From positions 2,480,001-2,544,000 of the forward strand of contig NZ_CP127295.1 in NCBI RefSeq assembly GCF_030285665.1: a stretch of 64,000 nucleotides of DNA, read 5' to 3'. Below the pieces are notes generated by a model that made no database searches, had not been told where the DNA came from, and saw only the letters and a program-made list of their open reading frames with translations. Below are positions 20,658 to 34,224 of the stretch, piece after piece (position 1 is the first letter of the stretch; every line of letters starts with the position of its first letter). Origin of the DNA: Amycolatopsis mongoliensis. Its GTDB lineage: Bacteria; Actinomycetota; Actinomycetes; Mycobacteriales; Pseudonocardiaceae. Both the position numbers and the translations under genes were made by a program.

Positions 20658-20732
20658 GGGTTGGGGAGGGATTTCGGGGGATGTGGACAAGCAGGCCGTA
20701 GTTGATCTTCAACGGGGCTGGTTGTCGGTCGT

Positions 20733-21638
20733 GTGACGCAGGTTTGGCGGGTGTTCCGACTTCGTAGCAGTGACCTGGTCGACTTTGCCGAGCCCTTCAT
20801 CGGGAGCCACGCCGTGGCCGAAGAGGCGTTGACGTTGTGCGACTTGCGGTCTCCGTTGTTCACCCGCTTGTTCCGGAACGTCTACGTCGCCTCGACGACC
20901 GAAGTCACGCACGCGATGCGGTGCCGGGCCGCTGCTCTGCTTGCACCGAGCAGAGCTGTCCTGACCGGGTGCTCGGCAGCGGCCATCTGGGGTCTCGACC
21001 TGGTCGGTCCGCAGGACTTGGTCGAATTCGTCGTGCCCGAGAACCTGAAGTTCGACCGGCAGGCCGGACTGCACATCCGGCGGACCAGCCGGGTGATCGA
21101 CAGCGAGCCGTGGGGTGACATCCAGCTCGCCACGCCTCTGCGGCTCGCGTTGGACGTCGCCACGAACACCAGGTTGCATCGTTCGCTTCCCCGGACCGTC
21201 GGCTACCTCGACGCCTTCCTCGGCAGCGGGCTGGTCGACCTGGCCGAGCTGCGCCGCTATCTCGGACCGCGCCGGGACAACGGAATGGTGCGAGCCAGGA
21301 AGGCGGTCGCGCTGGTTAATGCGCGCTCGGAGAGCGTGCCCGAGTCCGAACTGCGGGTGTGGCTCACCGTCGCCGGGCTCAAGCCCGAGGTCCAAGTTGA
21401 CGTCGTAGCGGCGTCAGGCAGCTTCCTCGGTCGCCTTGACCTGGCGTTTCCGGCGCAGAAGCTGGCCGTCGAGTACGACGGCGAGTGGCATCTCGACGGC
21501 ATCCAGCCGCGCCTCGACGCGCAGCGCCGCGCCGCGATCGAGGCCGAGGGATGGCGCTTCGTGATCGTCACCAAGGCTGACTTGTACGGCGATCCGAAGC
21601 GAGTGGTCGCGACCGTCCGGTCGTCACTTTCCCTATGA
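20733..21638 (+). CDS. AbiEi-like N-terminal domain / DUF559-type PD-(D/E)xK nuclease-like protein
   Basis: A 301-residue protein. The N-terminal half resembles the winged-helix plus antitoxin-type region of AbiEi-like proteins (RLFRNVYVAS, then CRAAALLAPSRAVLTGCSAAAIWGL). The C-terminal ~100 residues match the DUF559/Vsr-like fold: ESELRVWL, then RLDLAFPAQKLAVEYDGEWH with the D...ExD active-site pattern, then EGWRFVIVTKADL. This two-part protein is widespread and multi-copy in actinomycetes. Whether it is a nuclease, an antitoxin or a selfish gene is not settled. Codon use is less GC-biased than in neighbours (many TTG, GTT, CGT). Copies of one 22-base repeat flank it on both sides, and its stop lies in the right copy. 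The start is GTG 20733; GTG 20731 is out of frame. Confidence 0.78.
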   Translation: MTQVWRVFRLRSSDLVDFAEPFIGSHAVAEEALTLCDLRSPLFTRLFRNVYVASTTEVTHAMRCRAAALLAPSRAVLTGCSAAAIWGLDLVGPQDLVEFVVPENLKFDRQAGLHIRRTSRVIDSEPWGDIQLATPLRLALDVATNTRLHRSLPRTVGYLDAFLGSGLVDLAELRRYLGPRRDNGMVRARKAVALVNARSESVPESELRVWLTVAGLKPEVQVDVVAASGSFLGRLDLAFPAQKLAVEYDGEWHLDGIQPRLDAQRRAAIEAEGWRFVIVTKADLYGDPKRVVATVRSSLSL

Positions 21639-21685
21639 AAGATGCGTCCGGAGGCCCTCCGTGCGCATCTTTCATAGGAAAAGTG
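21625..21685. repeat. Hairpin repeat (CACTTTCCC family), right copy; likely bidirectional terminator
   Basis: Two 22-base arms (21625-21646 and 21664-21685) are complementary at 21 of 22 positions around an 18-base or shorter loop. The left arm repeats the element at 20636-20657 in the same orientation with one substitution. It contains the stop codon of the 20733 gene and ends 10 bases before the stop of the convergent response-regulator gene, so it probably terminates both. Confidence 0.75.
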
Positions 21686-21694
21686 CAGCTTCCG

Positions 21695-22351
21695 TTAGGC
21701 GAGGCCGGGGCGCGCGAGGCCGGTTTCGTAGGCCAGCACCACGGCCTGCACCCGGTCCCGCAGCTCCAGCTTCGCCAGGATCCGCCCGACGTGCGTCTTC
21801 ACCGTCGCCTCCGAGAGGAACAGCGCCTCCGCGATCTCCAGGTTCGACATGCCCTTGGCGATCAGCACGAGCACCTCGCGCTCGCGGTCGGTGAGCACGT
21901 CCAGCTCCGCGGTGTCCCGCATCGGCGCGCCGCCAGTGCCGACGAAGCGGTCGAGCAGCCGGCGGGTCACCGACGGCGAGACCACCGCGTCGCCCGAGGC
22001 GACCGCCCGCAGCGCCGAGACCAGGTGGTCGGGCTGGGTGTCCTTGAGCAGGAACCCGCTCGCCCCGCCCTGCAGCGCCGAGTAGACGTACTCGTCGAGG
22101 TCGAACGTCGTCATCACCAGCACACGCGCGGTGCCGGCGGCGACGATCCGCTTGGTCGCCTCCACGCCGTCGAGCACCGGCATCCGGACGTCCATCAGCA
22201 CGACGTCGGGGCGCAGCTCCTCGGCCATCCGGATGGCCTGCGCGCCGTCGCCGGCCTCGCCGACGACGTCGATGTCGGCCTGTGCGCCCAGGACCATCCG
22301 GAACCCGACGCGCATGAGTTCCTGGTCGTCGACGACCACCACACGGATCAC
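21695..22351 (-). CDS. NarL/LuxR-family response regulator
   Basis: A 218-residue response regulator: acidic pair D8-D9, phospho-acceptor D54 (LMDVRMPV), switch TTFD, conserved Lys in FLLKDTQP, and LuxR HTH at about 148-212 (LTDREREVLVLIAKGMSNLE, then ATVKTHVGRILAKLEL). It begins GTG at 22351, overlapping the kinase stop by four bases. Together with the kinase it forms a classic co-translated two-component system, paralogous to the one at 8282-10719. The target genes are not evident from the neighbourhood. Confidence 0.92.
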   Translation of the reverse strand: MIRVVVVDDQELMRVGFRMVLGAQADIDVVGEAGDGAQAIRMAEELRPDVVLMDVRMPVLDGVEATKRIVAAGTARVLVMTTFDLDEYVYSALQGGASGFLLKDTQPDHLVSALRAVASGDAVVSPSVTRRLLDRFVGTGGAPMRDTAELDVLTDREREVLVLIAKGMSNLEIAEALFLSEATVKTHVGRILAKLELRDRVQAVVLAYETGLARPGLA

Positions 22352-23544
22352 TTGTCCAACCTAACCGGCAGGGCCGCGCGGACCTGCCACCCACCGCCCG
22401 GAGCCGGGCCCACGTCGAGGGTCCCGCCGTACACGTGCGCGCGTTCGCGCATGCCGATCAGGCCGTTGCCGCCCGGCAGCCGTTGCGAACCGGGCGCGGT
22501 CGCGGCCAGCTGCGGGACGCGGCCCGCGCCGTCGTCGGAGACCAGGACCTCCACCAGGTCGCCGGTGCGGTGCACCCGCACCGCCGCGGTCGCGCCGCGG
22601 CCGGCGTGCTTGAGCGTGTTCGTCAACGACTCCTGGACGATCCGGTAGATCCCCAGCGAGACGCCGGCGGGCAGGTCGCCGAGGTCGTCGGTCTCCAGCT
22701 CCACCGGCACCCCGGCGGCGCGCATCCGGTCGGCCAGCTCGGCGAGGGCGTGCGCGTCCGGCTGCGGCACGCGGGGCTCGCCGTCGGCGTCGTCGCTGCG
22801 GAGCACGTCGAGCAGGCGCCGCAGCTCGCCGAGCGCGCCGCGGCCGGTCTCGGAAATCGTTTGCAGGGCCCGCTGAGCGAGCTCGGGGTTGCTCTGGATC
22901 GCGTAGGACGCGCCGTCGGCCTGCACCACCATGACGCTCACCGCGTGCGCGACGACGTCGTGCAGCTCGCGTGCGATCCGCCCGCGTTCCTCGGCCACCG
23001 CGATCCGGGTGGCCTGGTCCCGTTCGGTTTCGAGCAGGTGCAACCTGGCCTCCACTTCCACGTCGTAGGCGCGCCGGGCGCCGACGAACTCGCCGAGCGT
23101 CCAGCACAGGGCGATGCCGAACGCGAGGAACAGCACCGCGATGAGGAGCTCGTCGTCCAGTGGGGCCAGTGCCAGCTGCACGGCCGACGAGACGACGACC
23201 GCGCCGACGAAGATCAGGCCCTGCCGCCGTCCGGCGTAGACGACGACCGAGTAGATGCTCATCGCCAGCCCGGCGGCGCTGCCGATGCCGAGCATCAGGG
23301 TGGCGTGCACGACGCTGACCACGAGCACGCTGTAGGCCGACCACAGCGGTGACTTCCGCCGGAACACCAGCGGCGCGACCATCGCGATGTTGACCGGCAC
23401 GGCCACGTACCAGGGCGGCAGCTCCGGCAGCTCGGCGAACCGGTCGGCGACGAACAGCAGCAGGTCGACCAGGCCGAGCAGGACGGCGAGCACCGTGTCG
23501 CCCGCCATGGGGTGGGCACGCATCCAGAGGCTCAGCCGTCGCAC
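22348..23544 (-). CDS. Sensor histidine kinase (HisKA_3, DesK/LiaS-like)
   Basis: A 398-residue membrane kinase with five or six hydrophobic segments in the first 150 residues, no large external loop, and a short coiled linker (VEVEARLHLLETERDQATR). The phosphorylation motif is ARELHDVVAHAVSVMV near residue 192. The ATPase domain has YRIVQESLTNTLKHAGRG (N-box) and GGNGLIGMRERAHVYGG (G-box). It is coupled to the response regulator by a 4-base overlap. The N-terminus (MRRLSLWMRAHPMAGD) allows a start at 23544 or at Met8 or Met13. Confidence 0.9.
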   Translation of the reverse strand: MRRLSLWMRAHPMAGDTVLAVLLGLVDLLLFVADRFAELPELPPWYVAVPVNIAMVAPLVFRRKSPLWSAYSVLVVSVVHATLMLGIGSAAGLAMSIYSVVVYAGRRQGLIFVGAVVVSSAVQLALAPLDDELLIAVLFLAFGIALCWTLGEFVGARRAYDVEVEARLHLLETERDQATRIAVAEERGRIARELHDVVAHAVSVMVVQADGASYAIQSNPELAQRALQTISETGRGALGELRRLLDVLRSDDADGEPRVPQPDAHALAELADRMRAAGVPVELETDDLGDLPAGVSLGIYRIVQESLTNTLKHAGRGATAAVRVHRTGDLVEVLVSDDGAGRVPQLAATAPGSQRLPGGNGLIGMRERAHVYGGTLDVGPAPGGGWQVRAALPVRLDK

Positions 23545-23670
23545 CAGGTAACACTAGGTCCCGGGGTGGAGACCGCGCGTCGGTCGGCGGTACCACCTTC
23601 GGTGCGACCTCCGGATGAGGCCCATGGCACGATTCAGGGGGTTGTCCGTACGACGGGAGGGCTGGGGGCC

Positions 23671-25230
23671 GTGACGTCACCGGAGCAGGGCCGGCTCGCC
23701 GGTCCGCTGTCGATGTCGGTGGCCAACCTGTGTCACCGCCTGCAGTCGCAGGTCTCCGCGCGCACCGCGGCCGGTTTCGCGGAGGTGCTGCGCCGGCTCG
23801 GCGCGCCGCTGCAGGTGGCCGTCGCCGGGCGGATCAAGTCGGGCAAGTCGACGCTGGTCAACGCGCTGATCGGGCGCCGGGTCGCGCCGACCGACATCGG
23901 TGAGTGCACGCGGCTGGTGACCCGGTTCCAGTACGGCACGGTCGACCGCGTCGAGATCGTCTTCACCGACGGCCGCAAGCAGGTGCTCCCGTTCGCCTCC
24001 GACGGGATGATCCCGGCGGAGCTGGGCGTCGACATCGAGCAGGTGTCGCACATCGAGGCGTACCTGACCAACGCCGTCCTCCAGGGCATGACGGTGATCG
24101 ACACCCCCGGTCTCGGCTCGCTCGACGCCGCTTCGGTGTCCCGCACCGAGCAGCTCCTGGGCGCCGCGAAGCACCGCAAAGACGACGAGGACGAAGAGGG
24201 CTCGGACGAGCTCGACGACACCTCGCGCAGCGCGGTCGCCGGTGCCGAAGCCGTGCTCTACGTCGTCACCCAGGGCGTCCGCGCCGACGACCAGCAGGCC
24301 CTCGCCGCCTTCACCGCGGCCACCGCGAGCCGCGAAGCCGGCCCGGTCAACGCCATCGCCGTGCTGAACAAGGCCGACACCATCGCGCCGGAGTCGGTCG
24401 AAGGCGCGGACGGCGACGTCTGGAAGGCCGCGACGATCCTGTCCGAGAAACAGGCGTCGACGTTGAAGCCGCGCGTCGCCGACGTGCTGCCGGTGATCGG
24501 GCTGATCGCCGAGTCCGCGGAGTCCGGCGGGTTCACCTCCGCCGACGCGGAGGCGCTGCGGCAGCTCGCCGACCTCGACGACGACGTGCTGCAGACCATG
24601 CTGATCTCGGCCGACATCTTCACCAGCTGGGAGTGCGACGTCCCGTCGGGCACCCGGCTGCGGCTGCTGGAGAAGCTCGACCTGTTCGGCATCTCGCACG
24701 CCGTCGAGGCGATCCGCAAGGAGCCGGAGATCACCGCGGGCTCGCTGCGGCGCTCGCTGCTCGACGCGTCCGGGCTGGAGTCGGTGCGCCAGCGCCTGTC
24801 GGTGGTGTTCGCCGCCCGCGCCGACGGCATCAAGGCGGCCGCCGCCCTCGCCTCGGTCACCGCGCTCGCGCACGCCTCGGGCGACCCGGCCGAGCGCCAG
24901 CGCGTCCACGACGCCATCGAGGTGCTGCTCGCCAAGCCCGAGGCCCACCAGCTGCGGCTGCTCGAAGCCCTGACGCTGGTCGCGTCCGGCGCGGTCGACA
25001 TGCCGGAGGACCTGTCGGAGGAGGTGCTGCGGGTCGGCAGCAACGCCGACATCGGTGCCCAGCTCGGCAAGCCCGGCGCGCCGCGACCGGAGCTGGCCGC
25101 GCACGCGCTCGAGCGCGCGGGCTGGTGGCGCTCCTTCGCGTCCTTCGGCGCGACACCCGCGCAGAGCCGTGTCGCGCACGTCGTGCACCGGGCGTACTTC
25201 TTGATGTGGCAACAGGTGCGCGAAGCCTGA
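23671..25230 (+). CDS. Bacterial dynamin-like GTPase 1 (IniC-like)
   Basis: A protein of about 519 residues from GTG 23671 (GGGAGG about 12 bases upstream). GTPase motifs are G1 GRIKSGKS (53-60), G3 DTPG in VIDTPGLGSLD, and G4 NKAD. An acidic insert (KDDEDEEGSDELDDT) follows G3, and the C-terminal half is largely helical. There is no obvious membrane segment, unlike the partner at 27599. The pairing of one shorter and one longer dynamin resembles mycobacterial IniC/IniA, large GTPases that act on membranes under cell-envelope stress. The open frame extends upstream to 23512, but that part overlaps the divergent kinase gene and looks non-coding. Confidence 0.82.
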   Translation: MTSPEQGRLAGPLSMSVANLCHRLQSQVSARTAAGFAEVLRRLGAPLQVAVAGRIKSGKSTLVNALIGRRVAPTDIGECTRLVTRFQYGTVDRVEIVFTDGRKQVLPFASDGMIPAELGVDIEQVSHIEAYLTNAVLQGMTVIDTPGLGSLDAASVSRTEQLLGAAKHRKDDEDEEGSDELDDTSRSAVAGAEAVLYVVTQGVRADDQQALAAFTAATASREAGPVNAIAVLNKADTIAPESVEGADGDVWKAATILSEKQASTLKPRVADVLPVIGLIAESAESGGFTSADAEALRQLADLDDDVLQTMLISADIFTSWECDVPSGTRLRLLEKLDLFGISHAVEAIRKEPEITAGSLRRSLLDASGLESVRQRLSVVFAARADGIKAAAALASVTALAHASGDPAERQRVHDAIEVLLAKPEAHQLRLLEALTLVASGAVDMPEDLSEEVLRVGSNADIGAQLGKPGAPRPELAAHALERAGWWRSFASFGATPAQSRVAHVVHRAYFLMWQQVREA

Positions 25231-25289
25231 GTTTGTTTCTGCTTGCCGAATCTCGCTGGTAGGGGCGCTTTTCCGCGTACTGTTGAGAC

Positions 25290-25937
25290 GTGCGCCTAGA
25301 AAACACGACATCCTGGCGAGCCGGCTGGAGCAGCGAGAACGAGATCGACGTCGCGCTGTACATCCGTGACGCCCTGGCCCTGTCCGTTTCCGAAGGACAG
25401 GTGCTGCCGCCCGTGGAGCCGCGGGTCCCGGTGCACGTCCCGCCCGAGGTCGACCGCGCGGCCGTCCAGGCGCAGTGGGCCGACTGGTGGGTCGACCTCC
25501 TGGCCTTCCTCCGCAACCGCGAGGACCCGGACCCGCGCAGCCCGCGTTCCCGCTACGGCAGGCCCGCGCTCGCGCAGGGTTCGGCGATGCGGCAGGCGCT
25601 CGACTTCTTCGGCCCGGCCGCGGCCCGCCACTTCGCCAACGCGCGCGGGCCCGCCCTGCGCGGCGCGGGCGAGCCGGCGGGCGGCACGCCGTGGGCGCCC
25701 GGCTTCTACCGGCGCCAGATCGTGGCCGGCGAACGCCTCGGCCAGCTGGTGCGCGAGGCCGAGGTCCGGCTGGGGCGGCGGGCCTACCCGTTCCGGCTGA
25801 ACGTCATCGAGATCTCCGTCGCCGGGTCGATCTGGCTGCGCACGGCCGACGACCAGCTGCTCGTCTCGTCCCGGCTCGCCGAAGACGGTCCCGGCCTCGA
25901 GGCCGTGCTCCGCAAGGTGATCGACGAGTTGGTCTGA
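25290..25937 (+). CDS. Conserved hypothetical protein in dynamin cluster
   Basis: A 215-residue soluble protein with no recognised domain. It has two aromatic-rich patches (VQAQWADWWVDLLAFL at about 60-75 and ALDFFGPAAARHF at about 102-114) and a C-terminal beta-rich stretch (YPFRLNVIEISVAGSIWLRT, then LLVSSRLAED). There is no signal peptide or membrane segment. The GTG start at 25290 follows GAGACGTG weakly; the next candidate start is much further in. It lies 59 bases after the first dynamin gene, in the same direction, and may be co-transcribed. Its function is unknown; the context suggests an accessory to the dynamin system. Confidence 0.7.
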   Translation: MRLENTTSWRAGWSSENEIDVALYIRDALALSVSEGQVLPPVEPRVPVHVPPEVDRAAVQAQWADWWVDLLAFLRNREDPDPRSPRSRYGRPALAQGSAMRQALDFFGPAAARHFANARGPALRGAGEPAGGTPWAPGFYRRQIVAGERLGQLVREAEVRLGRRAYPFRLNVIEISVAGSIWLRTADDQLLVSSRLAEDGPGLEAVLRKVIDELV

Positions 25938-25980
25938 GCCCGGCTTTCATAAACCGAGCACGCGGTCTAATAATGGCGGT

Positions 25981-26460
25981 ATGGAGACGACCGTCGACGA
26001 GCCGCCGTGGCTGCGCACCGCGTCCTGGATCGGCTGCCCGCTGGCCGGCGGCGCGCTCGGCGTGGGGGTCTGGGCCGTCGCCGCGTGGGTCACCGCTCTG
26101 CCGGCCTTCCCGTTCCAGGGTGTGTTCAAGGTGCTCACGAAGCTGCCGCAGCCGTGGGCGACGCTCGCCGCGGTCGCCGGCGGGCTGGTGCTCGGCCTGG
26201 TGTTCGCCGTGGTCTGGGCGGTCGAGCGACTGGTCGTCACGGTGTCGCCGACCCGGGTCACGCTGGTCCGCGGTGACAAGACCCGCCGCATCGAGGCCGA
26301 CCTCGAAGCCGTCTACCTCGACGGCAAGGAGCTCGTCCTGCGGACCATCGACGGCCGGGAGATCGCCCGCGAGAAGACCGACCTGCGCAACCACGAACTG
26401 GCGCCTGCCTTCGCCGAACACGGCTACCCCTGGCGCGACGAGCCGCCGGTCGAGCGATGA
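25981..26460 (+). CDS. Small YqeB-like membrane protein
   Basis: A 159-residue protein with two membrane helices (about residues 17-38 and 59-84). A cytosolic beta-rich domain follows (LVVTVSPTRVTLVRGDK, then VYLDGKELVLRTIDGREIAREKTD), ending NHELAPAFAEHGYPW. The helix pair plus PH-like domain and the terminal HGYPW are features I associate with actinobacterial YqeB-family proteins, of unknown role. The assignment is tentative. It overlaps the following TetR gene by four bases (ATGA), which ties the two together. A PH-like membrane protein would fit a membrane-remodelling dynamin neighbourhood (inference). Confidence 0.7.
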   Translation: METTVDEPPWLRTASWIGCPLAGGALGVGVWAVAAWVTALPAFPFQGVFKVLTKLPQPWATLAAVAGGLVLGLVFAVVWAVERLVVTVSPTRVTLVRGDKTRRIEADLEAVYLDGKELVLRTIDGREIAREKTDLRNHELAPAFAEHGYPWRDEPPVER

Positions 26461-27071
26461 GGACGGTCGATCCGGCCAAGCACGCGGCCAAGCGCGCCAC
26501 GATCGTCGACGCCGCCGCCGGCTGCTTCGCCGAGAAAGGCTTCGAGCGGACGACGACGGCGGACATCTGCCGCGCCGCGGGCATCAGCTCCGGCAGCCTC
26601 TTCCACTACTTCCCGAACAAGCGCGCGATGTTCACGGCGATCTTCACCGACGACGCCGCCGAGACGGCCGGACGCCTCGAAACCGCGGCAAAGGCCGACG
26701 ACCAGTGGGAAGCGCTGCTCGACGTCGTCACCGAGCTGGCCGGCCAGGTCGCGCACCCCGCCGTCGTCCGGCTGGTCCTGGAGGCCGCGGCGCAGGCCGC
26801 CCGCGACGACGAGTTCGCGGAACTGATCCGGCGCAACGACGGCGCCCTCCGCGACGGCCTGGCCGTGCTGGTCGAGCGGGCCGCCGACGCCGGGCTGATC
26901 GACCCCGGCGTCACTGCGCGCGCGGCCGCCGGCTGGGTCGCCGGGCTGATCGACGCGATGATTTTGCGGGCCAGTCTCGACCCGGACCTCGATCTGCCCG
27001 CGGAACAGGCGGTCCTCCGGACGATCCTGGTCCGGTTCCTTCGTCCCGTTTCGCCCCCGGATGGCGCTTGA
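26457..27071 (+). CDS. TetR-family transcriptional regulator
   Basis: A 204-residue TetR protein with HTH at about residues 10-55 (KRATIVDAAAGCFAEKGFER, TTTADICRAAGISSGSLFHY, FPNKRAMFTAIF). The ligand domain contains paired acidic patches (ADDQWEALLDVVTELAGQV) and ends SPPDGA. It is translationally coupled to the YqeB-like gene. Placed in the middle of the dynamin cluster, it may control the genes on either side. No clear palindrome is visible directly upstream of 25981 or in 27072-27119. Confidence 0.88.
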   Translation: MRTVDPAKHAAKRATIVDAAAGCFAEKGFERTTTADICRAAGISSGSLFHYFPNKRAMFTAIFTDDAAETAGRLETAAKADDQWEALLDVVTELAGQVAHPAVVRLVLEAAAQAARDDEFAELIRRNDGALRDGLAVLVERAADAGLIDPGVTARAAAGWVAGLIDAMILRASLDPDLDLPAEQAVLRTILVRFLRPVSPPDGA

Positions 27072-27119
27072 GTCCGCCAAACTGGTGGAATCTGGCGGGA
27101 CCGGGACGAGGTGGTGCTC

Positions 27120-27602
27120 ATGGCGTGGTTTCGCAAGGACGGATCCGTCGATCCCGACGACACCCCCACCGGCCAGATCGCGGCCGTCAGCATCGCGCAG
27201 ATCATCGAGCAGGCTGATGCGGAAAAGGGAACCGAGAGCGCCGCGACCGCGTCGGACACCGATGTGCACCCCTTGCAGCAGCCGGTCGCCGCGACCGACC
27301 TCGAGCGTGCCCTCGCCGATAGGCACGCGCTGATCCAGATGTGCCTCTACGCGCTGGATCGCGCGCGCAGCGGCGGCGTCGTCGAACGCCTCGAAGAAGG
27401 CCTCGCCGCCATCGGCGTCCAGGCCCTGCGGCCCGACGGCGAGCGGTTCGACCCGGCCCGCCACGAGGCCGGCGGCGCGATCCCCACCGAAGACCCGGCG
27501 CTCGACGGCGTCGTCGCCGAAACCGAAGTCACCGGGTTCGCCGACCACGACCGCCTGCTGCGGGCCCCGATCGTCACCGTCTACGCGAAGAAGAGCCCGT
27601 GA
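27120..27602 (+). CDS. GrpE-like protein fused to acidic N-terminus, in dynamin operon
   Basis: A protein of about 160 residues (ATG 27120, GAGG about 9 bases upstream). The C-terminal half resembles the nucleotide-exchange domain of GrpE: an amphipathic helix (ERALADRHALIQMCLYALDR), then GVVERLEEGLAAIGVQALRPDGERFDPARHEA, and a beta wing ending VTGFADHDRLLRAPIVTVYAKK. In GrpE, the G-x-x-x-F-D-P-x-x-H-E-A pattern binds DnaK. The usual long N-terminal coiled coil is absent; it is replaced by about 60 polar residues. No dnaK-like gene lies in the window. The stop overlaps the dynamin-2 start by four bases (GTGA), so the two products are made together. Confidence 0.72.
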   Translation: MAWFRKDGSVDPDDTPTGQIAAVSIAQIIEQADAEKGTESAATASDTDVHPLQQPVAATDLERALADRHALIQMCLYALDRARSGGVVERLEEGLAAIGVQALRPDGERFDPARHEAGGAIPTEDPALDGVVAETEVTGFADHDRLLRAPIVTVYAKKSP

Positions 27603-29437
27603 GCGCACCGACCGCGCCGAGCCTGCCCTCGCAGGTCGCGGCGGCGCGAGACCAGCTGCTGACCGTCGTCCGCGACGCCGACCCGGACGCCGCCAAGTGG
27701 GTCGACGCGGTCCGGCGGGCCCGGCCGAAGAAGCCGGCCGTCGTGGTCGTCGGCGAGACGAACCGCGGCAAGAGCTCCCTGGTCAACGCGCTGCTCGCGA
27801 CCCCGGGACTGTCCCCTGTGGACGCCGACGTCGCCACCGCGACCTACCTGGTGTTCGACCACGCCGACGCGTGGGGCGCGCAGGCCTGCTACCCCGGTCA
27901 GCTGGCGCCGGTGCCCCTCGACCTCGGCCAGCTGATCAACTGGGTCTCCGCCGCGCACGAGCTGCCGCCGGGCCAGATCCCGCCGCGGTACGTCGAGGTC
28001 ACCGGGCCGGTGCCGCTGCTCGAACGGCTTTCGCTGGTCGACACCCCGGGCGTCGGCGGGCTCGACTCGATGCACGGCGAGCTCGCGAAGGAAGCGGCCG
28101 CGGGCGCGACCGCGCTGCTGTTCGTCGTCGACGCCTCGGCGCCGTTCACCTCGACCGAGCTGCAGTTCCTGCGCGACGTCGGCGAACGCGTCGAAACCGT
28201 GGTGTTCGCCCTGACCAAGGTGGACATGTTCCGCGGCTGGCGCGAGGTCATGGAGGCCGACCGGCAGCTGCTGCGCGAGCACGCGCCGCGCTTCGCCGAC
28301 TCGGTGTTCCACCCGGTCTCGGCGCGGATGTTCGAGACGGCGGCGAAGGCGCCCAACGAGCAGATGGCCGCGATGCTGCGGGAGAAGTCCGGCGTCGCCG
28401 CGGTGCAGATGGCGCTGCAGGAGCTGCTCGTCGGCCGTTCGGCCATGCTCGGCGAGGCGAACACGCTGCGTGCGCTCTCCAGTGCGCTCGGTGAGCTGAA
28501 GGCGAAGCTGCAGGCCGAGAGCCGGGCGCTGTCCGCGGGCGAGGCCGAGGCCGAGGTGCTGCGCGAACGCCGTGACCAGCTGCAGGCCGAACGCCGGACG
28601 TCGACCCGCGGCTGGCAGCTGAAGCTGCGCGGCGAGGTGCAGCGCACGCGCGTCGAGGTCCTGCACGAAAGCAGCCGGCAGATGCGGGACGCGCAGACCC
28701 ACTTCCGCCAGCTGATCGACGCGGCGAAGCGCGACGAGCTGACCGCGCTGCCGCAGCAGGTCGACATCGCGCTGCAGACGACGTCGCAGCGGATCTCGAT
28801 GCTGCTTTCCCAGCGCCTGAACCAGGTCACCAACGTCTCGCTGTCGGAGCTGTTCTCCGCCGAGGAGCTCGACGTCATCCGCGCGCAGTTCGCCCGGGCC
28901 GGCGGCCCGCCGGTGGTGCTGCGTCCGCCGGACAAGAAGCCGCCGACGGCCGAGGACAAGCTGCTCGTGTTCATGGGCATCTCGGGCGGTGTCGGCGCCG
29001 GCAAGGTGGCCGCGCTGCCGCTGGCCGGCGTCGCGATCCTCAACCCCGTCGTGCTGCCCGCGACGATCATCATCGGCCTCGGCGCCGGCTGGTGGATGGC
29101 CCGCACGCGCAAGCACGCGGCCGACAAGCAGCACATGAAGCAGTGGCTGGTCGAGGCCATCGCGGACGCCCGCTCGACGCTCGACCAGCTCGTCGCCGAG
29201 CAGCTCATCGAGGCCGAACAGCAGCTGTCGATGGCGCTGGACGAGGCCCTCGGCCGGCGCATCGACGCGATCGAGGCCGAGCTGAAGGAAGTCGACAAGA
29301 CGATCAAGATGGGGGCCCAGGAGCGGGCCAAGAAGATCGCGATCGTGTCGAAGCGGCTCAAAGAGGTCAGCGACGGCCGTGAGCGGGCCGAAGCCTTCCT
29401 GACGCGGATCCGGGCACTGCGGGACAAGGCGGCCTGA
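27599..29437 (+). CDS. Bacterial dynamin-like GTPase 2 (IniA-like, with membrane hairpin)
   Basis: A 612-residue dynamin family protein. G1 is GETNRGKSS (52-60), G2 lies in DADVATATYL, G3 is DTPGVGG (about 148), and G4 is TKVD. A long helical stalk (about 300-440) contains heptad-like stretches. A hydrophobic Gly-rich hairpin at about 453-500 (VFMGISGGVGAGKVAALPL, then PATIIIGLGAGWWM) should insert into the membrane. A final coiled coil runs from about 510 to 612. Bacterial dynamins of this shape bind and fuse or protect membranes; mycobacterial IniA is the nearest known type by layout. It is encoded in one unit with the GrpE-like protein, 2.4 kb from dynamin 1. Confidence 0.88.
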   Translation: MSAPTAPSLPSQVAAARDQLLTVVRDADPDAAKWVDAVRRARPKKPAVVVVGETNRGKSSLVNALLATPGLSPVDADVATATYLVFDHADAWGAQACYPGQLAPVPLDLGQLINWVSAAHELPPGQIPPRYVEVTGPVPLLERLSLVDTPGVGGLDSMHGELAKEAAAGATALLFVVDASAPFTSTELQFLRDVGERVETVVFALTKVDMFRGWREVMEADRQLLREHAPRFADSVFHPVSARMFETAAKAPNEQMAAMLREKSGVAAVQMALQELLVGRSAMLGEANTLRALSSALGELKAKLQAESRALSAGEAEAEVLRERRDQLQAERRTSTRGWQLKLRGEVQRTRVEVLHESSRQMRDAQTHFRQLIDAAKRDELTALPQQVDIALQTTSQRISMLLSQRLNQVTNVSLSELFSAEELDVIRAQFARAGGPPVVLRPPDKKPPTAEDKLLVFMGISGGVGAGKVAALPLAGVAILNPVVLPATIIIGLGAGWWMARTRKHAADKQHMKQWLVEAIADARSTLDQLVAEQLIEAEQQLSMALDEALGRRIDAIEAELKEVDKTIKMGAQERAKKIAIVSKRLKEVSDGRERAEAFLTRIRALRDKAA

Positions 29438-29541
29438 CCGCCCGTCCGGTTGTGGAGCGGAACCGAACGGGCCTACGGTGAGTCATACCCTCCGACAGCA
29501 GGTCAGAGACGGCGTTACCCGGTTCAAAGGGGGAAGTTCCC

Positions 29542-30252
29542 ATGTGGGTCGACGAGAGCGGCGGCAGCGACACCGATGCCAGCGGCACCGAGGCGATGAC
29601 CGTCCACGTCGACGGCCAGGAGTACCAGGCCGAGGTCAACTACGACGTGAACGAGGACGGCGTCAACGACACCGCGATCGTCGAGCACGACGACGGCACG
29701 TCCCAGGCCTTCATCGACACGAACCACGACGGTGAAGCCGACCAGTACGCCGTGCTGGACGACACCGGGCACGTCGTCGAGCAGGCCGTCTACGACGAGG
29801 CCAGCGGCGAGTGGGTCGAGGCCTCCGGGGGCGGCCACGACGACTCCGGCACGAGCGGCCACGACGACAGCTCCGGCGGCCACATCCACGCGGACATGCC
29901 GGACGGCGAGGTCGACGCGGGCGCGGCGACGATCGACACCGACCACGACGGCCACAACGACACCGCCATCGTCGAGACGAAGAGCGGCGGCACGATCGCC
30001 TTCACCGACAAGGACGGCGACGGCGAAGCCGACATCGCGGTGCAGACCGACGCGGACGGCACGACCACGACGTTCGAGCACAGTGGCCCCGGCCAGTGGA
30101 CCGAAGTCTCGAGTGGACTGCTGGACTCCGGCAGCGAGCAGCAGCTCGGCGACCCGGCCGACGACGCCGCGTGGGGCGCGGCCGGAACGCAGACGCTCGA
30201 GGGCGTCGCGCGCATCGACTCCGGCACCGGGCAGTGGATCTCGCCCAACTGA
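29542..30252 (+). CDS. Acidic Asp/Gly repeat protein (DUF6802-like), calcium-loop motifs
   Basis: A 236-residue, extremely acidic protein with no signal peptide. It is made of repeats of the form D-x-N/D-x-D-G-x-x-D: DVNEDGVNDT, DTNHDGEADQ, DTDHDGHNDT and DKDGDGEADI. Each is followed by a short beta strand (AIVE..., YAVLDDTG), and a His/Ser/Gly-rich linker lies at about 95-118. The pattern resembles thrombospondin type-3 or EF-hand-like calcium loops, so Ca2+ binding is plausible. The family name (DUF6802) is from memory and uncertain. The ATG at 29542 has AAAGGGGGAAG upstream. It lies 104 bases after dynamin 2 and ends at a terminator, which makes it the probable last gene of the cluster. 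Confidence 0.75.
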   Translation: MWVDESGGSDTDASGTEAMTVHVDGQEYQAEVNYDVNEDGVNDTAIVEHDDGTSQAFIDTNHDGEADQYAVLDDTGHVVEQAVYDEASGEWVEASGGGHDDSGTSGHDDSSGGHIHADMPDGEVDAGAATIDTDHDGHNDTAIVETKSGGTIAFTDKDGDGEADIAVQTDADGTTTTFEHSGPGQWTEVSSGLLDSGSEQQLGDPADDAAWGAAGTQTLEGVARIDSGTGQWISPN

Positions 30253-30274
30253 AACGTAACCCAGGTCACATTTT

Positions 30275-30304
30275 GAAAGCCCGGTGCGCGAGCGCCGGGC
30301 TTTC
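30275..30304 (+). terminator. Intrinsic-type terminator after the dynamin cluster
   Basis: GAAAGCCCGG (30275-30284) and CCGGGCTTTC (30295-30304) form a perfect 10-bp stem with a 10-base loop, followed by TTC. It lies 22 bases after the stop of the acidic repeat protein. Confidence 0.75.
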
Positions 30305-30348
30305 TTCATGTCGCAAATGAAAACGACCAGGTCACGGGCGTGATCGCA

Positions 30349-30602
30349 GTCACCGGAAGATTTACTGCGAATGCACCGATCCGGTGACGTCTGAATCGAT
30401 TCCCTTATCGTTCTTGTGAGAGAACGTACACGTCAGCTATCGGTTACCTGCCGGTCATGCGGCTACTCTCGGGGAATCCCAAAACACGCACACCGGTTCG
30501 CCAGCCGGTGTGCGAAGCCATTCGGTCGCCGGCAATGAAGCCCGCACCAGGACAGCGTCGTTCCGGTGCGGGCTTGTTTGTCGTCGGAAGTCAGGAGTAG
30601 AG
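30349..30602 (+). promoter_or_regulatory. pckG upstream region with stacked hairpins (candidate structured leader)
   Basis: No gene is visible between the terminator and pckG. The stretch contains inverted repeats: GTCACCGGA/TCCGGTGAC (30349-30357 and 30380-30388), CGTTCT/AGAACG (30409-30414 and 30421-30426), GCACACCGG/CCGGTGTGC (30488-30496 and 30505-30513), and AAGCCCGCACC/GGTGCGGGCTT (30538-30548 and 30565-30575). The last is followed by GTTTGT, like an intrinsic terminator, only about 27 bases before the ATG. The first two could be operators; the last two would fold in the 5' leader and could attenuate transcription. AGGAG at 30592-30596 is the ribosome-binding site. Confidence 0.5.
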
Positions 30603-32423
30603 ATGACCGCAGTCGCCATCCCCGGACTGGACACCGCGCCGACGACGCACAGTGGCGTGCTGTCCTTCGTCCGGGAGGTCGCCGAACTGACCACCCCGGA
30701 CCGCGTGGTGTGGGTCGACGGGTCTGACGAAGAAGCCGCCCGGATCAACCAGGAGCTGGTCGACTCGGGCACGTTCGTGCAGCTCAAGTCGAAGCCCAAC
30801 TCCTTCTGGGCCACTTCCGACCCGAACGACGTCGCCCGCGTCGAAGACCGGACCTTCATCTGCTCGAAGCGTCCCGAGGACGCCGGTCCCACCAACAACT
30901 GGATGGACCCGGCCGAGATGAAGGCCACCATGACCGAGCTCTTCCGGGGCTCGATGCGCGGCCGCACGATGTACGTCATCCCCTTCTGCATGGGCCCGCT
31001 CGCCGACGAGAATCCCAAGCTGGGTATCGAAATCACCGATTTCGCCTACGTTGTCGCCTCGATGCGCGTGATGACCCGCGCGGGCAAGGCGGCCCTCGAC
31101 AAGTTCGTCGCGCCGGATGGCAGCGAGCGTGAATTCGTGCCCGCGCTGCACTCCGTGGGTGCGCCGCTCGAGCCGGGCGAGAAGGACGTTTCCTGGCCCT
31201 GCAACACGACGAAGTACATTTCGCACTTCCCCGAGGAGCGCGCGATCTGGAGCTACGGCTCGGGATACGGCGGCAACTCGCTGCTGGGCAAGAAGTGCTA
31301 CTCGCTGCGCATCGCCTCGGTGATGGCCCGCGACGAGGGCTGGCTCGCCGAGCACATGCTGATCCTCAAGCTGATCTCGCCCGAGGACAAGGTCCACTAC
31401 GTCGCGGCCGCGTTCCCGAGCGCCTGCGGCAAGACCAACCTCGCCATGCTGCAGCCGACCATCCCGGGCTGGCGCGCCGAGACCCTGGGCGACGACATCG
31501 CGTGGATGCGCTTCGGTGAGGACGGCCGCCTGTACGCGGTCAACCCCGAGTTCGGCTTCTTCGGCGTCGCGCCGGGCACCGACTGGCACACCAACCCGAA
31601 CGCCATGCGCACGATCGAGAAGGGCAACACGGTCTTCACGAACGTCGCCCTGACCGACGACGGCGACATCTGGTGGGAGGGCATGGAGAACAAGCCGGCC
31701 CACGCCATCTCGTGGAAGAACGAGGACTGGACGCCGGACTCCGACGAGAAGGCCGCCCACCCGAACTCGCGCTACTGCACGCCGATGTCGCAGTGCCCGA
31801 TCCTCGCGCCGGAGTGGGACGACCCGAAGGGCGTGCCGATCTCGGCGATCCTGTTCGGTGGCCGTCGCAAGACGACGGTGCCGCTGGTGAACGAGGCCCG
31901 CGACTGGCAGCACGGCGTGTTCATGGGTGCCACCATGTCGTCGGAGACCACGGCGGCCGCGGCCGGCGCGGTCGGCAACGTGCGCCGCGACCCGATGGCG
32001 ATGCTGCCGTTCCTCGGCTACCACGCCGGTGACTACTTCAAGCACTGGCTGAACCTCGGCAAGAACGCCGACGCGAACAAGCTGCCGAAGATCTTCTACG
32101 TCAACTGGTTCCGCCGCGGTGACGACGGCCGGTTCCTGTGGCCGGGCTTCGGCGAGAACTCGCGCGTCCTCAAGTGGATCATCGACCGGGTCGAGGGCCA
32201 CGGCACCGCGACCGAGACGCCGATCGGCTTCGTGCCGAAGGCCGAGGACCTCGACACCGAGGGCCTCGACGAGCCGATCGAGGACATCCAGGCCGCTCTC
32301 GACGTCAAGCCCGAGGAGTGGCGCGAGGAGCTGCCGCTGATCGAGGAGTGGTTCGAGAAGATCGGCGAGGTCCCGACGTCGCTGCGGGACGAGCTCGACG
32401 CGCTGGCCCAGCGCCTCGCCTGA
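30603..32423 (+). CDS. pckG: Phosphoenolpyruvate carboxykinase (GTP)
   Basis: A 606-residue enzyme that converts oxaloacetate + GTP to phosphoenolpyruvate + CO2 + GDP, linking the TCA cycle to gluconeogenesis. GTP-type signatures are the P-loop kinase-1 motif FPSACGKTN (271-279) with the hyper-reactive Cys at 275, metal-binding [24 protein letters not shown], and [20 protein letters not shown]. The length matches the actinobacterial and animal GTP-PEPCK family, not the ~540-residue ATP type. The ATG at 30603 has AGGAG 6 bases upstream. It is a single gene between two terminators. The structured leader upstream suggests regulated expression. Confidence 0.97.
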
Positions 32424-32434
32424 GGCTCACCGAC

Positions 32435-32468
32435 GAGAAGGGGACGTCCCTCGGGGCGTCCCCTTCTC
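32435..32468 (+). terminator. Intrinsic-type terminator after pckG
   Basis: GAGAAGGGGACG (32435-32446) pairs perfectly with CGTCCCCTTCTC (32457-32468) around a 10-base loop, 12 bases after the pckG stop. There is no long T-run, as is common in actinomycetes. Confidence 0.75.
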
Positions 32469-32492
32469 CGCGTCTGCGGGTAGGTTCACGCC

Positions 32493-33335
32493 ATGAGACC
32501 GTTCCGCTTCGGGGTGGCACTGGTGGCGCCCGGCTCCCGGGCCGAGTGGGTGGCGAAGTGCCGCCGGGCCGAGGACCTCGGCTACGACGTCGTCGGGGTC
32601 GTCGACCACCTCGGGCGGGTCGCGCCGGTGCCGGCGCTGCTGCTCGCCGCCGAGGCCACCGAGCGGGTCCGGCTGAACACGTACGTGCTCAACGCGAGCT
32701 TCCACAACCCGGTCCTGCTGGCCCGCGACCTCGCCGGGCTCGACGAGTTCACCGAGGGGCGCCTGGAGATCGGGATCGGTGCCGGGTACGTCCGCGCGGA
32801 GTTCGAGGCCGCCGGGATCGACTGGGGCACGCCCGGGCAGCGGTTCGCGCGGGTCCGAAGCGCGGTCGCCGAAATCGAGCGCGCTTACGAGTCCCGCCCC
32901 CGGCCGCCGCTGCTGCTCGGTGGCCGCGGTGACCGCATGCTGAGCTTCGCCGCCGAGCACGCCGACACCGTCGCCTTCACCGGCACCGCGCCCGGCGCGG
33001 CCGAGGGACGGCTGGCCCTGGCCGGTCCCACCGCGCTCGCCGAGCGCGTCGACTTCGTGAAACGGGCGCTCGGCGGTCGCGACGCCGAGCTCAACCTGCT
33101 GATCCACTTCATCCGGATCACCGGCGACCGGCGGGCGGCGCTCGAAGCGGCCCACCGGCTCGTGCCGCACCTCGGTGCCGACGAGCTCGGCGAGCTGCCC
33201 ACGGTGGTCGTCGGCTCCGCGGAAGCGGCGGCCGAGCAGCTGCTGCGCACACGGGAGACGCTCGGCGTCAGCTACTTCACGGTGATCGAAGAGGACCTGA
33301 CCAGGCTCGCCCCGGTGATCGAAAAGCTCCGCTGA
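32493..33335 (+). CDS. LLM-class (luciferase-like) oxidoreductase, F420-type, copy 1
   Basis: A 280-residue TIM-barrel oxidoreductase of the bacterial luciferase-like superfamily. It has FRFGVALVAPG at the N-terminus, AEDLGYDVVGVVDHLG, the strand LEIGIGAGYVRAEFEAAGI (family hallmark G-x-G-x-G/Y), and PPLLLGGRGDRMLSFAAEHAD, the phosphate-binding part for F420 or FMN. Actinobacterial members of this TIGR03621-like type generally use F420 (family knowledge). The substrate is unknown. It is followed after 13 bases by a close paralogue, so this is a tandem duplication, and then by a coupled ABC ATPase gene. Confidence 0.85.
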   Translation: MRPFRFGVALVAPGSRAEWVAKCRRAEDLGYDVVGVVDHLGRVAPVPALLLAAEATERVRLNTYVLNASFHNPVLLARDLAGLDEFTEGRLEIGIGAGYVRAEFEAAGIDWGTPGQRFARVRSAVAEIERAYESRPRPPLLLGGRGDRMLSFAAEHADTVAFTGTAPGAAEGRLALAGPTALAERVDFVKRALGGRDAELNLLIHFIRITGDRRAALEAAHRLVPHLGADELGELPTVVVGSAEAAAEQLLRTRETLGVSYFTVIEEDLTRLAPVIEKLR

Positions 33336-33348
33336 GTACCTTGGTCGC

Positions 33349-34224
33349 ATGACTGGGGATTTCCGCTTCGGCGTCAACATGGTGGTGCCGGACAGCCGTG
33401 CCGCGTGGGTCGAGAAGTGCCGCAAGGTCGAGGACCTCGGCTACGACGTGCTGTCCGCGGCCGACCACCTCGGCATGGCGCCGCCGTTCCCGGCGCTCGT
33501 GCTCGCCGGCGAGGTCACTTCGCGCGTCAAGCTGAACACCTTCGTGCTCAACGCGCCCTTCTACAACCCGGTGCTGCTCGCGCGGGACGTCACGGGCACC
33601 GACCAGTTCACCGAAGGCCGCCTGGAACTGGGGCTCGGCGCCGGGTACGTCAAGGAGGAGTTCGAGGCGGCCGGGATGCCGTTCCCGTCCGCGCGCGAAC
33701 GCGTCGACCACCTCGAGCGGACGATCATCGAGCTCAAGCGGCTCTACGCCGATCCGGAGCACAAGCCGGCGCCGGTCCGCGCCGAAGGGCCGCCGTTGCT
33801 GCTCGGCGGCCGCGGCGACCGCATCCTGACCCTCGCCGCCGAGCACGCCGACACCATCGGCTTCACCGGCACGTCGAAGACGACGGACGGTGCCCCGCTC
33901 GGCCTGGCCACGGCCGAGGACATCGAGGAGCGCGTCGGGTTCGTCCGGTCGAAGCTCGGGGGCCGCGAAGCCGAGTTCAACCTGCTCTGCCACTTCGTGA
34001 ACATCACCGAAGACCGCAAGGCGGCGCTGGAAGACCTCGAAAAGCTGGTCGGCGGTCAGCACTCCGTCGCCCAGCTCGCCGAGCTGCCGACCGCGCTGAT
34101 CGGCTCGCCCGCCGAGGTCGCCGACCAGCTCCACGCGCACCGCGAGCGGTTCGGCCTGACCTACTACACCGTCCTGGAGCAGAACATGGAGCAGTTCGCC
34201 CCGGTGCTCGAGGCGCTCCGATGA
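33349..34224 (+). CDS. LLM-class oxidoreductase, F420-type, copy 2
   Basis: A 291-residue paralogue of the preceding gene with the same landmarks: FRFGVNMVVPDS, VEDLGYDVLSAADHLG, LELGLGAGYVKEEFEAAGM, PPLLLGGRGDRILTLAAEHAD. It contains about 10 extra residues after the central helix (LYADPEHKPAPVRAEG). The tandem pair may act on related substrates. Its stop overlaps the start of the ABC ATPase by four bases (ATGA). Confidence 0.85.
   Translation: MTGDFRFGVNMVVPDSRAAWVEKCRKVEDLGYDVLSAADHLGMAPPFPALVLAGEVTSRVKLNTFVLNAPFYNPVLLARDVTGTDQFTEGRLELGLGAGYVKEEFEAAGMPFPSARERVDHLERTIIELKRLYADPEHKPAPVRAEGPPLLLGGRGDRILTLAAEHADTIGFTGTSKTTDGAPLGLATAEDIEERVGFVRSKLGGREAEFNLLCHFVNITEDRKAALEDLEKLVGGQHSVAQLAELPTALIGSPAEVADQLHAHRERFGLTYYTVLEQNMEQFAPVLEALR

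What the first reader, a model, noticed from the sequence alone, without database searches (positions are those of the whole stretch)
23671..30252. Dynamin-centred cluster: two dynamin-like GTPases, GrpE-like protein, YqeB-like membrane protein, TetR and an acidic repeat protein
Two large GTPases of different build (one soluble-looking, one with a membrane hairpin) lie in one direction with small uncharacterised genes between them, several coupled by 4-base overlaps. The pair recalls mycobacterial iniA/iniC, but the partners here differ: a GrpE-like protein made in one unit with dynamin 2, a possible PH-like membrane protein coupled to a TetR regulator, and an Asp/Gly calcium-loop protein before a terminator. 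A membrane-protection or repair system with its own regulator is a reasonable hypothesis.
Basis: partly seen in the sequence, partly recalled or inferred. Interest (0 to 1): 0.7.

Follow-up and report, generated by a model that had tools for sequence, protein, structure and literature searches.

The report
Dynamin pair with chaperone-type partners
Two membrane-shaping dynamin proteins of a soil bacterium are encoded around a small GrpE-like protein, and in many relatives also beside a membrane-anchored Hsp70-type ATPase, which suggests that some bacterial dynamins are controlled by chaperone-type machinery.

Summary
The genes are there, but the unit is not the proposed six-gene cluster. The conserved core is dyn1 (IniC type), a GrpE-like protein and dyn2 (IniA type), in that order in 67 of 72 loci fetched by dyn2 match. 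YqeB-TetR and an unknown gene were found only within part of the genus (5 and 6 of 11 genus loci, 0 of 61 others); YqeB-TetR carries a promoter-like site with a palindrome. The acidic DUF6802 protein is a frequent neighbour (31 of 40). A divergent two-component pair (36 of 40) is a better regulator candidate than TetR.

The surprise lies outside the window. In 8 of 11 other families, 23 of 32 loci hold an Hsp70-type ATPase near dyn2, against 0 of 20 displaced control regions. Its sequence distances track both dynamins as closely as they track each other. The window's own family usually keeps related Hsp70s elsewhere, and three genera keep the trio without the closest kind.

Best reading: a dynamin pair governed by a GrpE-type exchange factor and a membrane-anchored Hsp70. 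Gene association is shown; physical and functional coupling is inferred. Structure prediction never ran.

The parts
21695..22351 (-). NarL-type response regulator (Response_reg + GerE)
   Evidence: divergent upstream of dyn1 in 36 of 40 loci L038-L077, in two of them (L044, L061) several kb away
22348..23544 (-). histidine kinase (HisKA_3, DUF7134, four TM-like segments)
   Evidence: same loci as above
23589..23609 (.). candidate operator: imperfect 9-3-9 palindrome GGTNNCACC-NNC-GGTGNNACC between the kinase and dyn1
   Evidence: at most 2 mismatches in the window and 10 of 11 genus loci at a fixed place, but only 2 of 19 other loci; pattern taken from the same sequences, so not an independent test
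23671..25230 (+). dyn1, IniC-type dynamin-like GTPase, no TM segment; core gene
25290..25937 (+). 215-aa protein of unknown family, not part of the core
   Evidence: 6 of 11 genus loci, 0 of 61 others; no Pfam match
25946..25974 (+). promoter-like site TTCATA-N17-AATAAT holding the palindrome ACCGAGCACGCGGT (25953-25966); candidate TetR operator
   Evidence: 1 found, 0.2 expected; conserved in 6 of 6 sequences that have yqeB; 1 match in the own genome, control 0
25981..26460 (+). YqeB-like bacterial PH membrane protein (PF23494), inserted
   Evidence: 5 of 11 genus loci, 0 of 61 others
26457..27071 (+). TetR-family regulator, overlapping yqeB by 4 bases, inserted with it
   Evidence: between yqeB and the GrpE-like gene in the five genus loci that have yqeB
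27120..27602 (+). GrpE-like protein: C-terminal beta-domain region and a short helical part of GrpE; core gene
   Evidence: between dyn1 and dyn2 in 67 of 72 loci
27599..29437 (+). dyn2, IniA-type dynamin-like GTPase with a hydrophobic hairpin; core gene
   Evidence: hydrophobic segment in 72 of 72
29542..30252 (+). acidic DUF6802 protein with four DxDxDGxxD loops; frequent neighbour
   Evidence: 31 of 40 loci L038-L077
30275..30304 (+). hairpin with T-rich tail, likely terminator

Best explanation
The functional core is a three-gene module, dyn1 (IniC type), a GrpE-like protein and dyn2 (IniA type). It most likely makes a heterotypic dynamin pair: dyn2 inserts its hydrophobic hairpin into the plasma membrane and dyn1 joins it from the cytosol. 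A membrane-anchored Hsp70-type ATPase (nucleotide-binding domain, proline-rich linker, one TM segment, no substrate-binding domain matched) acts as the ATP-driven switch that remodels or takes apart the dynamin assembly, and the GrpE-like protein resets that ATPase by nucleotide exchange. In most other families of the order the Hsp70 gene is beside the trio. In this genome it is unlinked; the best candidate is the copy beside DUF3046-recX. Expression is probably set by the divergent two-component pair rather than by TetR. YqeB-TetR is a later insertion that may bring grpE-dyn2 under a second promoter. Shown: gene content, order, conservation, co-occurrence, parallel divergence. Inferred: protein contacts, nucleotide exchange, disassembly, regulation, membrane maintenance.
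For: Order dyn1>GrpE>dyn2 in 67 of 72 loci fetched by dyn2 match. GrpE identity: PF01025 above cut-off, profile matches seven solved GrpE chains, best E 5e-9. Hsp70 in 23 of 32 loci outside the window's family, 8 of 11 families; 0 of 20 displaced regions of the same genomes; background about 0.012 per 20 kb from 52 matches in 84 Mb of 12 genomes of the window's family. Mantel r over 33 loci: dyn1-Hsp70 0.963, dyn2-Hsp70 0.933, dyn1-dyn2 0.942. Two genomes of the same genus as others (L102, L104, f4) carry a cassette that is divergent in all three genes. Non-ESX-like Hsp70 (E <= 1e-110) in 47 of 66 dyn2-positive against 1 of 133 dyn2-negative genomes (test in 78). Ini-type loci have their own Hsp70 clade, 98/86, and an Hsp70 in 8 of 10 named Ini-type loci; a paper notes a dnaK-like gene beside iniR in M. 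smegmatis (PMC5760070, passage). dyn2 profile aligns with IniA over its whole length, E 1.8e-49.
Against: In the window's family only 1 of 39 loci (L045) has an Hsp70 within reach, and 13 of 36 dyn2-positive family genomes (g25, g26, g33) match no Hsp70 at E <= 1e-110, only weaker ones; the copies of three of them that were looked at (L125, L126, L127) are ESX-linked. So the trio can persist without the dedicated Hsp70. GrpE is missing between the dynamins in L079, L093 and L105, and in named loci L151 and L153. Ini-type loci have Hsp70 but no GrpE-like gene by this profile. Six of 27 linked Hsp70s show no TM segment after the nucleotide-binding domain, all four of the f30 rows among them. The parallel distances partly reflect shared ancestry; no housekeeping-gene control was run. 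The E threshold of the co-occurrence test was chosen after seeing the hits. No contact, structure or activity was tested: structure prediction was busy in all 13 attempts.
Confidence: 0.5

Rival explanations
1. The GrpE-like protein is a structural adaptor of the dynamin pair that has lost nucleotide exchange; the trio works without any Hsp70 and the Hsp70 is a genetic neighbour serving the envelope in another way.
For: Only the C-terminal part of GrpE is kept (model 99-163 of 165) and it scores far below the equivalog cut-offs (34.1 against 164); 13 of 36 family genomes keep the trio without a close non-ESX Hsp70; Hsp70s of this kind also sit in ESX loci without dynamins.
Against: The kept part is, by recall of the GrpE-DnaK structure, the part that contacts the Hsp70 nucleotide-binding domain; Hsp70 linkage recurs in 8 of 11 families and its divergence follows the dynamins.
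Confidence: 0.25
2. One reading: a six-gene membrane protection or repair system with TetR as dedicated regulator.
For: All genes on one strand, two 4-base overlaps; no terminator-like site listed between tetR and the GrpE-like gene, so read-through into grpE-dyn2 is possible.
Against: yqeB 5 of 11 and the 215-aa gene 6 of 11 genus loci, 0 of 61 others; own promoter-like site and palindrome at yqeB, found once in the genome; the divergent two-component pair is far more conserved (36 of 40).
Confidence: 0.06
3. The dynamin pair serves cell division or sporulation septation, like Streptomyces DynA/DynB.
For: Paired dynamins in filamentous actinobacteria; DynA/DynB described in the passages seen of PMC6104087.
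Against: Homology of dyn1/dyn2 to DynA/DynB was not tested here; the closest relatives found are IniC/IniA type. No division gene was noticed beside the trio, but the neighbours were not annotated systematically.
Confidence: 0.12
4. An anti-phage defence system of the LeoA/LeoBC kind.
For: PADLOC LeoA 95.4 bits and LeoBC 74.6 bits for dyn2; 37.8 and 31.5 bits for dyn1.
Against: dyn2 was found in 36 of 36 genus genomes and in 36 family genomes with one listed without, in a fixed place beside PEPCK in most loci: unlike the patchy spread expected of defence genes (general knowledge). Better matched by IniA.
Confidence: 0.05

Closest known systems
Mycobacterial IniA/IniC of iniBAC (IniA structure 6j72)
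   Same: IniA-type and IniC-type dynamin pair side by side; dyn2 aligns with IniA over its full length; Hsp70-type gene beside the pair in this genome's own Ini-type locus L110 and, by PMC5760070, a dnaK-like gene by iniR in M. smegmatis
   Different: Separate subclades on both sides of the dynamin tree; reversed order with a GrpE-like gene between; two-component pair instead of an AAA/LuxR activator; Hsp70 of another clade
GrpE nucleotide exchange factor (PF01025)
   Same: C-terminal region with the FDP..H and G...(L/R)..V.V motifs; profile matches seven GrpE chains
   Different: Long N-terminal helix not matched; encoded between dynamins, not with dnaK; two full GrpE genes exist elsewhere in this genome
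Campylobacter Cj-DLP1/2 heterotypic pair
   Same: Paired bacterial dynamins expected to work as a hetero-oligomer (PMC6104087, passages)
   Different: No GrpE or Hsp70 named in the passages seen; 'GrpE' has 0 occurrences in that text
LeoA/B/C dynamins
   Same: Moderate profile matches
   Different: Weaker than the IniA match; gene set differs

Membership tests
Bacterial dynamin-like proteins | dynamin GTPase domain with G1, G3, G4 motifs in both proteins | tested here: met
   Dynamin_N above cut-off for both; GRIKSGKS/DTPG/NKAD and GETNRGKS/DTPG/TKVD
Bacterial dynamin-like proteins | helical stalk and membrane-binding tip | tested here: inconclusive
   dyn2 aligns with IniA over 20-595 of 600 profile positions and has a hydrophobic hairpin; dyn1 matched solved structures mainly in its GTPase part; structure prediction never ran
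iniBAC system | adjacent IniA-type and IniC-type genes | tested here: met
   at the level of the two large clades
iniBAC system | membership of the Ini subclades | tested here: not met
   Ini-type rows form their own subclades, 9 of 28 on each side, 100/100 and 99/98; trio dynamins fall outside
iniBAC system | iniB gene and IniR-type activator | tested here: not met
   neither was found in 20709-33425 by ORF list and Pfam; no dedicated IniB profile was used
GrpE | GrpE C-terminal region | tested here: met
GrpE | full-length GrpE with the long N-terminal helix | tested here: not met
   only model 99-163 of 165; far below NCBIfam equivalog cut-offs
GrpE | nucleotide exchange on an Hsp70 | not testable with these tools
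   needs purified proteins
LeoABC-type defence | LeoA/LeoBC gene set | tested here: inconclusive
   profile hits without curated cut-offs; no third Leo gene sought
Streptomyces DynA/DynB | orthology to DynA/DynB | not tested
   no Streptomyces DynA/DynB sequence was fetched; the DynAB paper PMC5544309 is not held

The most novel reading that the evidence does not exclude
A widespread actinobacterial machine in which a membrane-anchored Hsp70-type ATPase, with a dedicated GrpE-type exchange factor, takes apart or resets a two-subunit dynamin coat on the inner face of the plasma membrane: a bacterial counterpart in logic, not in descent, of Hsc70-driven coat removal beside dynamin in eukaryotes (comparison recalled). 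The Ini stress system would be a second branch of the same dynamin-Hsp70 partnership.
Probability: 0.33. Interest if true: 0.85.

Novelty: new variant of a known kind. Interest (0 to 1): 0.64.

Why it matters
How bacterial dynamin pairs are switched on, taken apart or coupled to ATP is open. If the Hsp70 and GrpE-like partners are real, this gives named genes, in non-pathogenic actinomycetes, for a direct test, and it would place Hsp70 chemistry beside dynamins in two related systems, one of them (Ini) studied for its part in the response to tuberculosis drugs. It also corrects the boundaries of the unit in this window.

Tried and rejected
Six-gene unit: rejected by presence and absence across loci. 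TetR as regulator of the whole cluster: its candidate palindrome was found once in the genome, at yqeB; in the window the looser pattern gave 15 matches against 9.0 expected at up to 2 mismatches, only one of them exact. Defence system: PADLOC hits kept as a weak rival. IniR kinship of the large LuxR-type gene upstream of the trio in other families (L092): only the 55-residue DNA-binding end aligned. A first co-occurrence count at E <= 1e-90 (60 of 66 against 1 of 133) was withdrawn after one search showed that the 47-50% identical copies looked at lie beside an FtsK/SpoIIIE-type (EccC-like) gene; the stricter E <= 1e-110 count is reported instead. DUF6802 hits outside the family (15 of 32 loci) are not relied on, because the profile is rich in Asp and may match any such protein.

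Literature, all in the PMC library held: ten searches found no paper linking GrpE or Hsp70 with bacterial dynamins as a system; most subscription papers and all bioRxiv preprints are outside it. Seen as passages: PMC5760070, PMC6715688, PMC6104087. The rest only as search listings. PMC5760070 does mention a dnaK-like gene downstream of iniR in M. smegmatis, so linkage in the Ini locus is not wholly unreported.

Rows dropped: of 30 order-level dyn2 hits one (G084, contig edge) was not fetched; of 35 other genus genomes, 11 were fetched as 20-kb loci. L079 and L082 were left out because their Hsp70 is cut by the end of the stretch. L066 is a class-level genome counted among the 40 loci L038-L077. 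Four Hsp70-like matches shorter than 250 residues were left out of the tree (66 of 70 kept).
Full report
WHAT IS THERE. The window lies in a 10.8-Mb genome held as one contig; the closest named relatives found carry the same locus and are Amycolatopsis (L154, L163). dyn1 has no TM-like segment and dyn2 has a hydrophobic hairpin. The GrpE-like protein matches only the C-terminal part of GrpE (model 99-163 of 165), and a profile of 30 relatives finds seven solved GrpE chains, best E 5e-9. The genome has two further, fuller GrpE genes.

WHAT THE UNIT IS. dyn2 was searched in 60 relatives, 199 genomes of the order and 296 of the class. It is in 36 of 36 genomes of the genus. In the order sample 66 of 199 match at E <= 1e-40: 36 of the window's family, with one family genome (G189) listed without a match, although 113 non-matching genomes are not listed. 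I fetched 20-kb stretches (some cut by contig ends) around dyn2 from 72 genomes: L038-L077 (39 of the window's family and one class-level genome, L066) and L078-L109 (29 of the order, one more, two of the class). dyn1 lies upstream on the same strand in 70 of 72, and the GrpE-like gene between the two in 67 of 72: 40 of 40 and 27 of 32. The exceptions are L079, L093 and L105 (no GrpE between), L101 (dyn1 not found in the stretch, which starts at a contig end) and L102 (another order). This trio is the unit.

WHAT IS NOT THE UNIT. yqeB is in 5 and the 215-aa gene in 6 of the 11 genus loci, and in 0 of the 61 others. In the six sequences that have yqeB (the window and five loci) there is a TTSATA-N17-TRMTAWT-like site with an ACCGAGCNCNCGGT palindrome between the hexamers; a stricter pattern of it occurs once in the genome, control 0. 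This is what a self-controlled yqeB-tetR pair would look like (inference). No terminator-like site was listed between tetR and the GrpE-like gene, so read-through into grpE-dyn2 is possible. The acidic DUF6802 protein is found in 31 of the 40 loci L038-L077, with four DxDxDGxxD loops in 26 of those 31. A divergent kinase and regulator pair is in 36 of 40, in L044 and L061 at some distance. Between the kinase and dyn1 lies an imperfect palindrome kept, with at most 2 mismatches, in the window and 10 of 11 genus loci, but in only 2 of 19 other loci tested. The pattern was drawn from these same sequences, so it is a lead only.

THE HSP70 PARTNER. Looking for what else recurs beside the trio, I found in other families an Hsp70 gene (Pfam HSP70 in L086). 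With a profile, 23 of the 32 loci L078-L109 hold one in the stretch, in 8 of the 11 families there (f3, f4, f5, f7, f11, f13, f16, f30; not f8, f12, f15), against 1 of 40 in L038-L077 (L045). In 20 stretches displaced 100 kb in 20 of the same genomes the profile found none. In 12 genomes of the window's family there are 52 matches in about 84 Mb, or about 0.012 per 20 kb. In f3 and f4 the gene is upstream on the same strand, in f5, f11 and f13 downstream and convergent; in L102 the order is dyn2, GrpE-like, Hsp70, dyn1. Four such proteins were scanned with Pfam and match HSP70 only up to model position 368-369 of 599, that is, the nucleotide-binding part (L086; L173, L102, L104). After that part 21 of 27 linked copies show a TM-like segment, most after a proline-rich linker; six do not, including all four f30 copies.

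PARALLEL DIVERGENCE. For 33 loci with both dynamins and an Hsp70, identity distances correlate: dyn1-dyn2 0.942, dyn1-Hsp70 0.963, dyn2-Hsp70 0.933; for the 24 trio-type loci 0.950, 0.967, 0.943. Shared ancestry alone could give much of this, and no housekeeping control was run. But L102 and L104, from genomes given the same genus label as L078-L084, have cassettes only 33-38% (dyn1), 27-32% (dyn2) and 39-46% (Hsp70) identical to those of their relatives, which among themselves are 73-79%, 60-75% and 79-89%. L169 (Williamsia) groups with L102 in both dynamin clades and in the Hsp70 tree, where the join is flagged as two long branches meeting. The genes seem to travel together.

THE INI BRANCH. 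In a tree of 56 dynamins, 28 IniC/dyn1-type and 28 IniA/dyn2-type rows separate at 100/100, and in each the nine Ini-type rows form a subclade apart from the trio rows (100/100 and 99/98). Hsp70s beside Ini-type pairs fall in a clade of their own (12 rows, 98/86, one of them a long branch), and 8 of the 10 named loci that I class as Ini-type hold one (L156, L158, L159, L161, L162, L164, L165, L166; not L157, a 5.8-kb contig, nor L160). The class of L157, L162 and L165 rests on profile scores and, for the last two, the Hsp70 tree, as they were not in the dynamin tree. This genome's own Ini-type locus (L110) holds an AAA/LuxR-type gene, the pair, and an Hsp70 on the same strand. No GrpE-like gene was found in these loci with my profile. 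G189, the family genome without the trio, has two such loci with Hsp70.

WHERE THE HSP70 WENT IN THIS GENOME. Three own copies match at 49-58% identity. The 58% copy (5207489-5208550) has DUF3046 and RecX genes next to it, and this neighbourhood is kept in 8 of 8 family genomes looked at. The 50% copy (1643740) lies beside an FtsK/SpoIIIE-type gene and WXG100 genes; its clade does so in 11 of 11 loci for the FtsK/SpoIIIE-type gene. All three are nested in the clade of trio-linked Hsp70s, 41 rows, 100/99. Two family genomes still have a copy fairly near: G136 (L045, about 7 kb) and G220 (about 13 kb).

CO-OCCURRENCE. Among 199 genomes of the order, a match at E <= 1e-110 to the L086 nucleotide-binding domain is in 47 of 66 dyn2-positive and 1 of 133 dyn2-negative genomes; by genus 18 of 23 and 1 of 29 (Fisher tests). 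The one exception, G043, lies at a contig end. Against the reading: 13 of 36 family genomes, all of the genera g25, g26 and g33 in the sample, keep the trio but match only at weaker E values; the copies examined from G062's genus (G185) and from two g26 genomes are ESX-linked. The threshold was set after seeing the list, and genomes are not independent.

HOW IT PROBABLY WORKS. Shown: trio, order, GrpE homology, Hsp70 linkage and co-divergence. From family knowledge: dynamin pairs form hetero-oligomers (PMC6104087, passages), IniA cuts membranes with GTP in vitro (PMC6715688, passages), and GrpE releases nucleotide from Hsp70 (recalled). Inferred: the GrpE-like protein resets a membrane-anchored Hsp70-type ATPase that takes apart or remodels the dynamin assembly. 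Because the Hsp70 shows no substrate-binding domain in the four scans, it may act as a switch or scaffold rather than a chaperone. Structure prediction was asked for 13 times and never ran.

VERDICT. Observation confirmed, interpretation partly supported. The dynamins are members of a known kind. The combination with a GrpE-like protein and a membrane-anchored Hsp70 was not found in ten searches of the held papers, apart from a one-line mention of a dnaK-like gene by iniR in M. smegmatis.

Noticed in passing
L175:8353-10443 (own genome 1643740-1644852): An Hsp70-type gene with one TM segment lies beside an FtsK/SpoIIIE-type (EccC-like) gene with WXG100 genes nearby; the FtsK/SpoIIIE-type neighbour is found in 11 of 11 loci of this Hsp70 clade, so an Hsp70 may be a regular part of some type VII secretion loci.
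   Followed up: partly
L110 (own genome 8338000-8357900): Second dynamin pair of Ini type with an AAA/LuxR-type gene, a 450-aa ORF without Pfam match in the place of iniB, and an Hsp70 on the same strand.
   Followed up: partly
window 29542-30252: DUF6802 protein with four calcium-loop-like DxDxDGxxD motifs between dyn2 and the PEPCK gene, kept in 31 of 40 loci; function unknown.
   Followed up: partly
L173:9430-13485: Hsp70, DUF3046 and RecX genes kept together in 8 of 8 family genomes looked at.
   Followed up: partly
window 20733-21638: 301-aa protein with a weak match to an REase-like domain (MTES_1575 25.1 bits, cut-off 38.2; DUF559 17.6 bits, cut-off 20.6).
   Followed up: no
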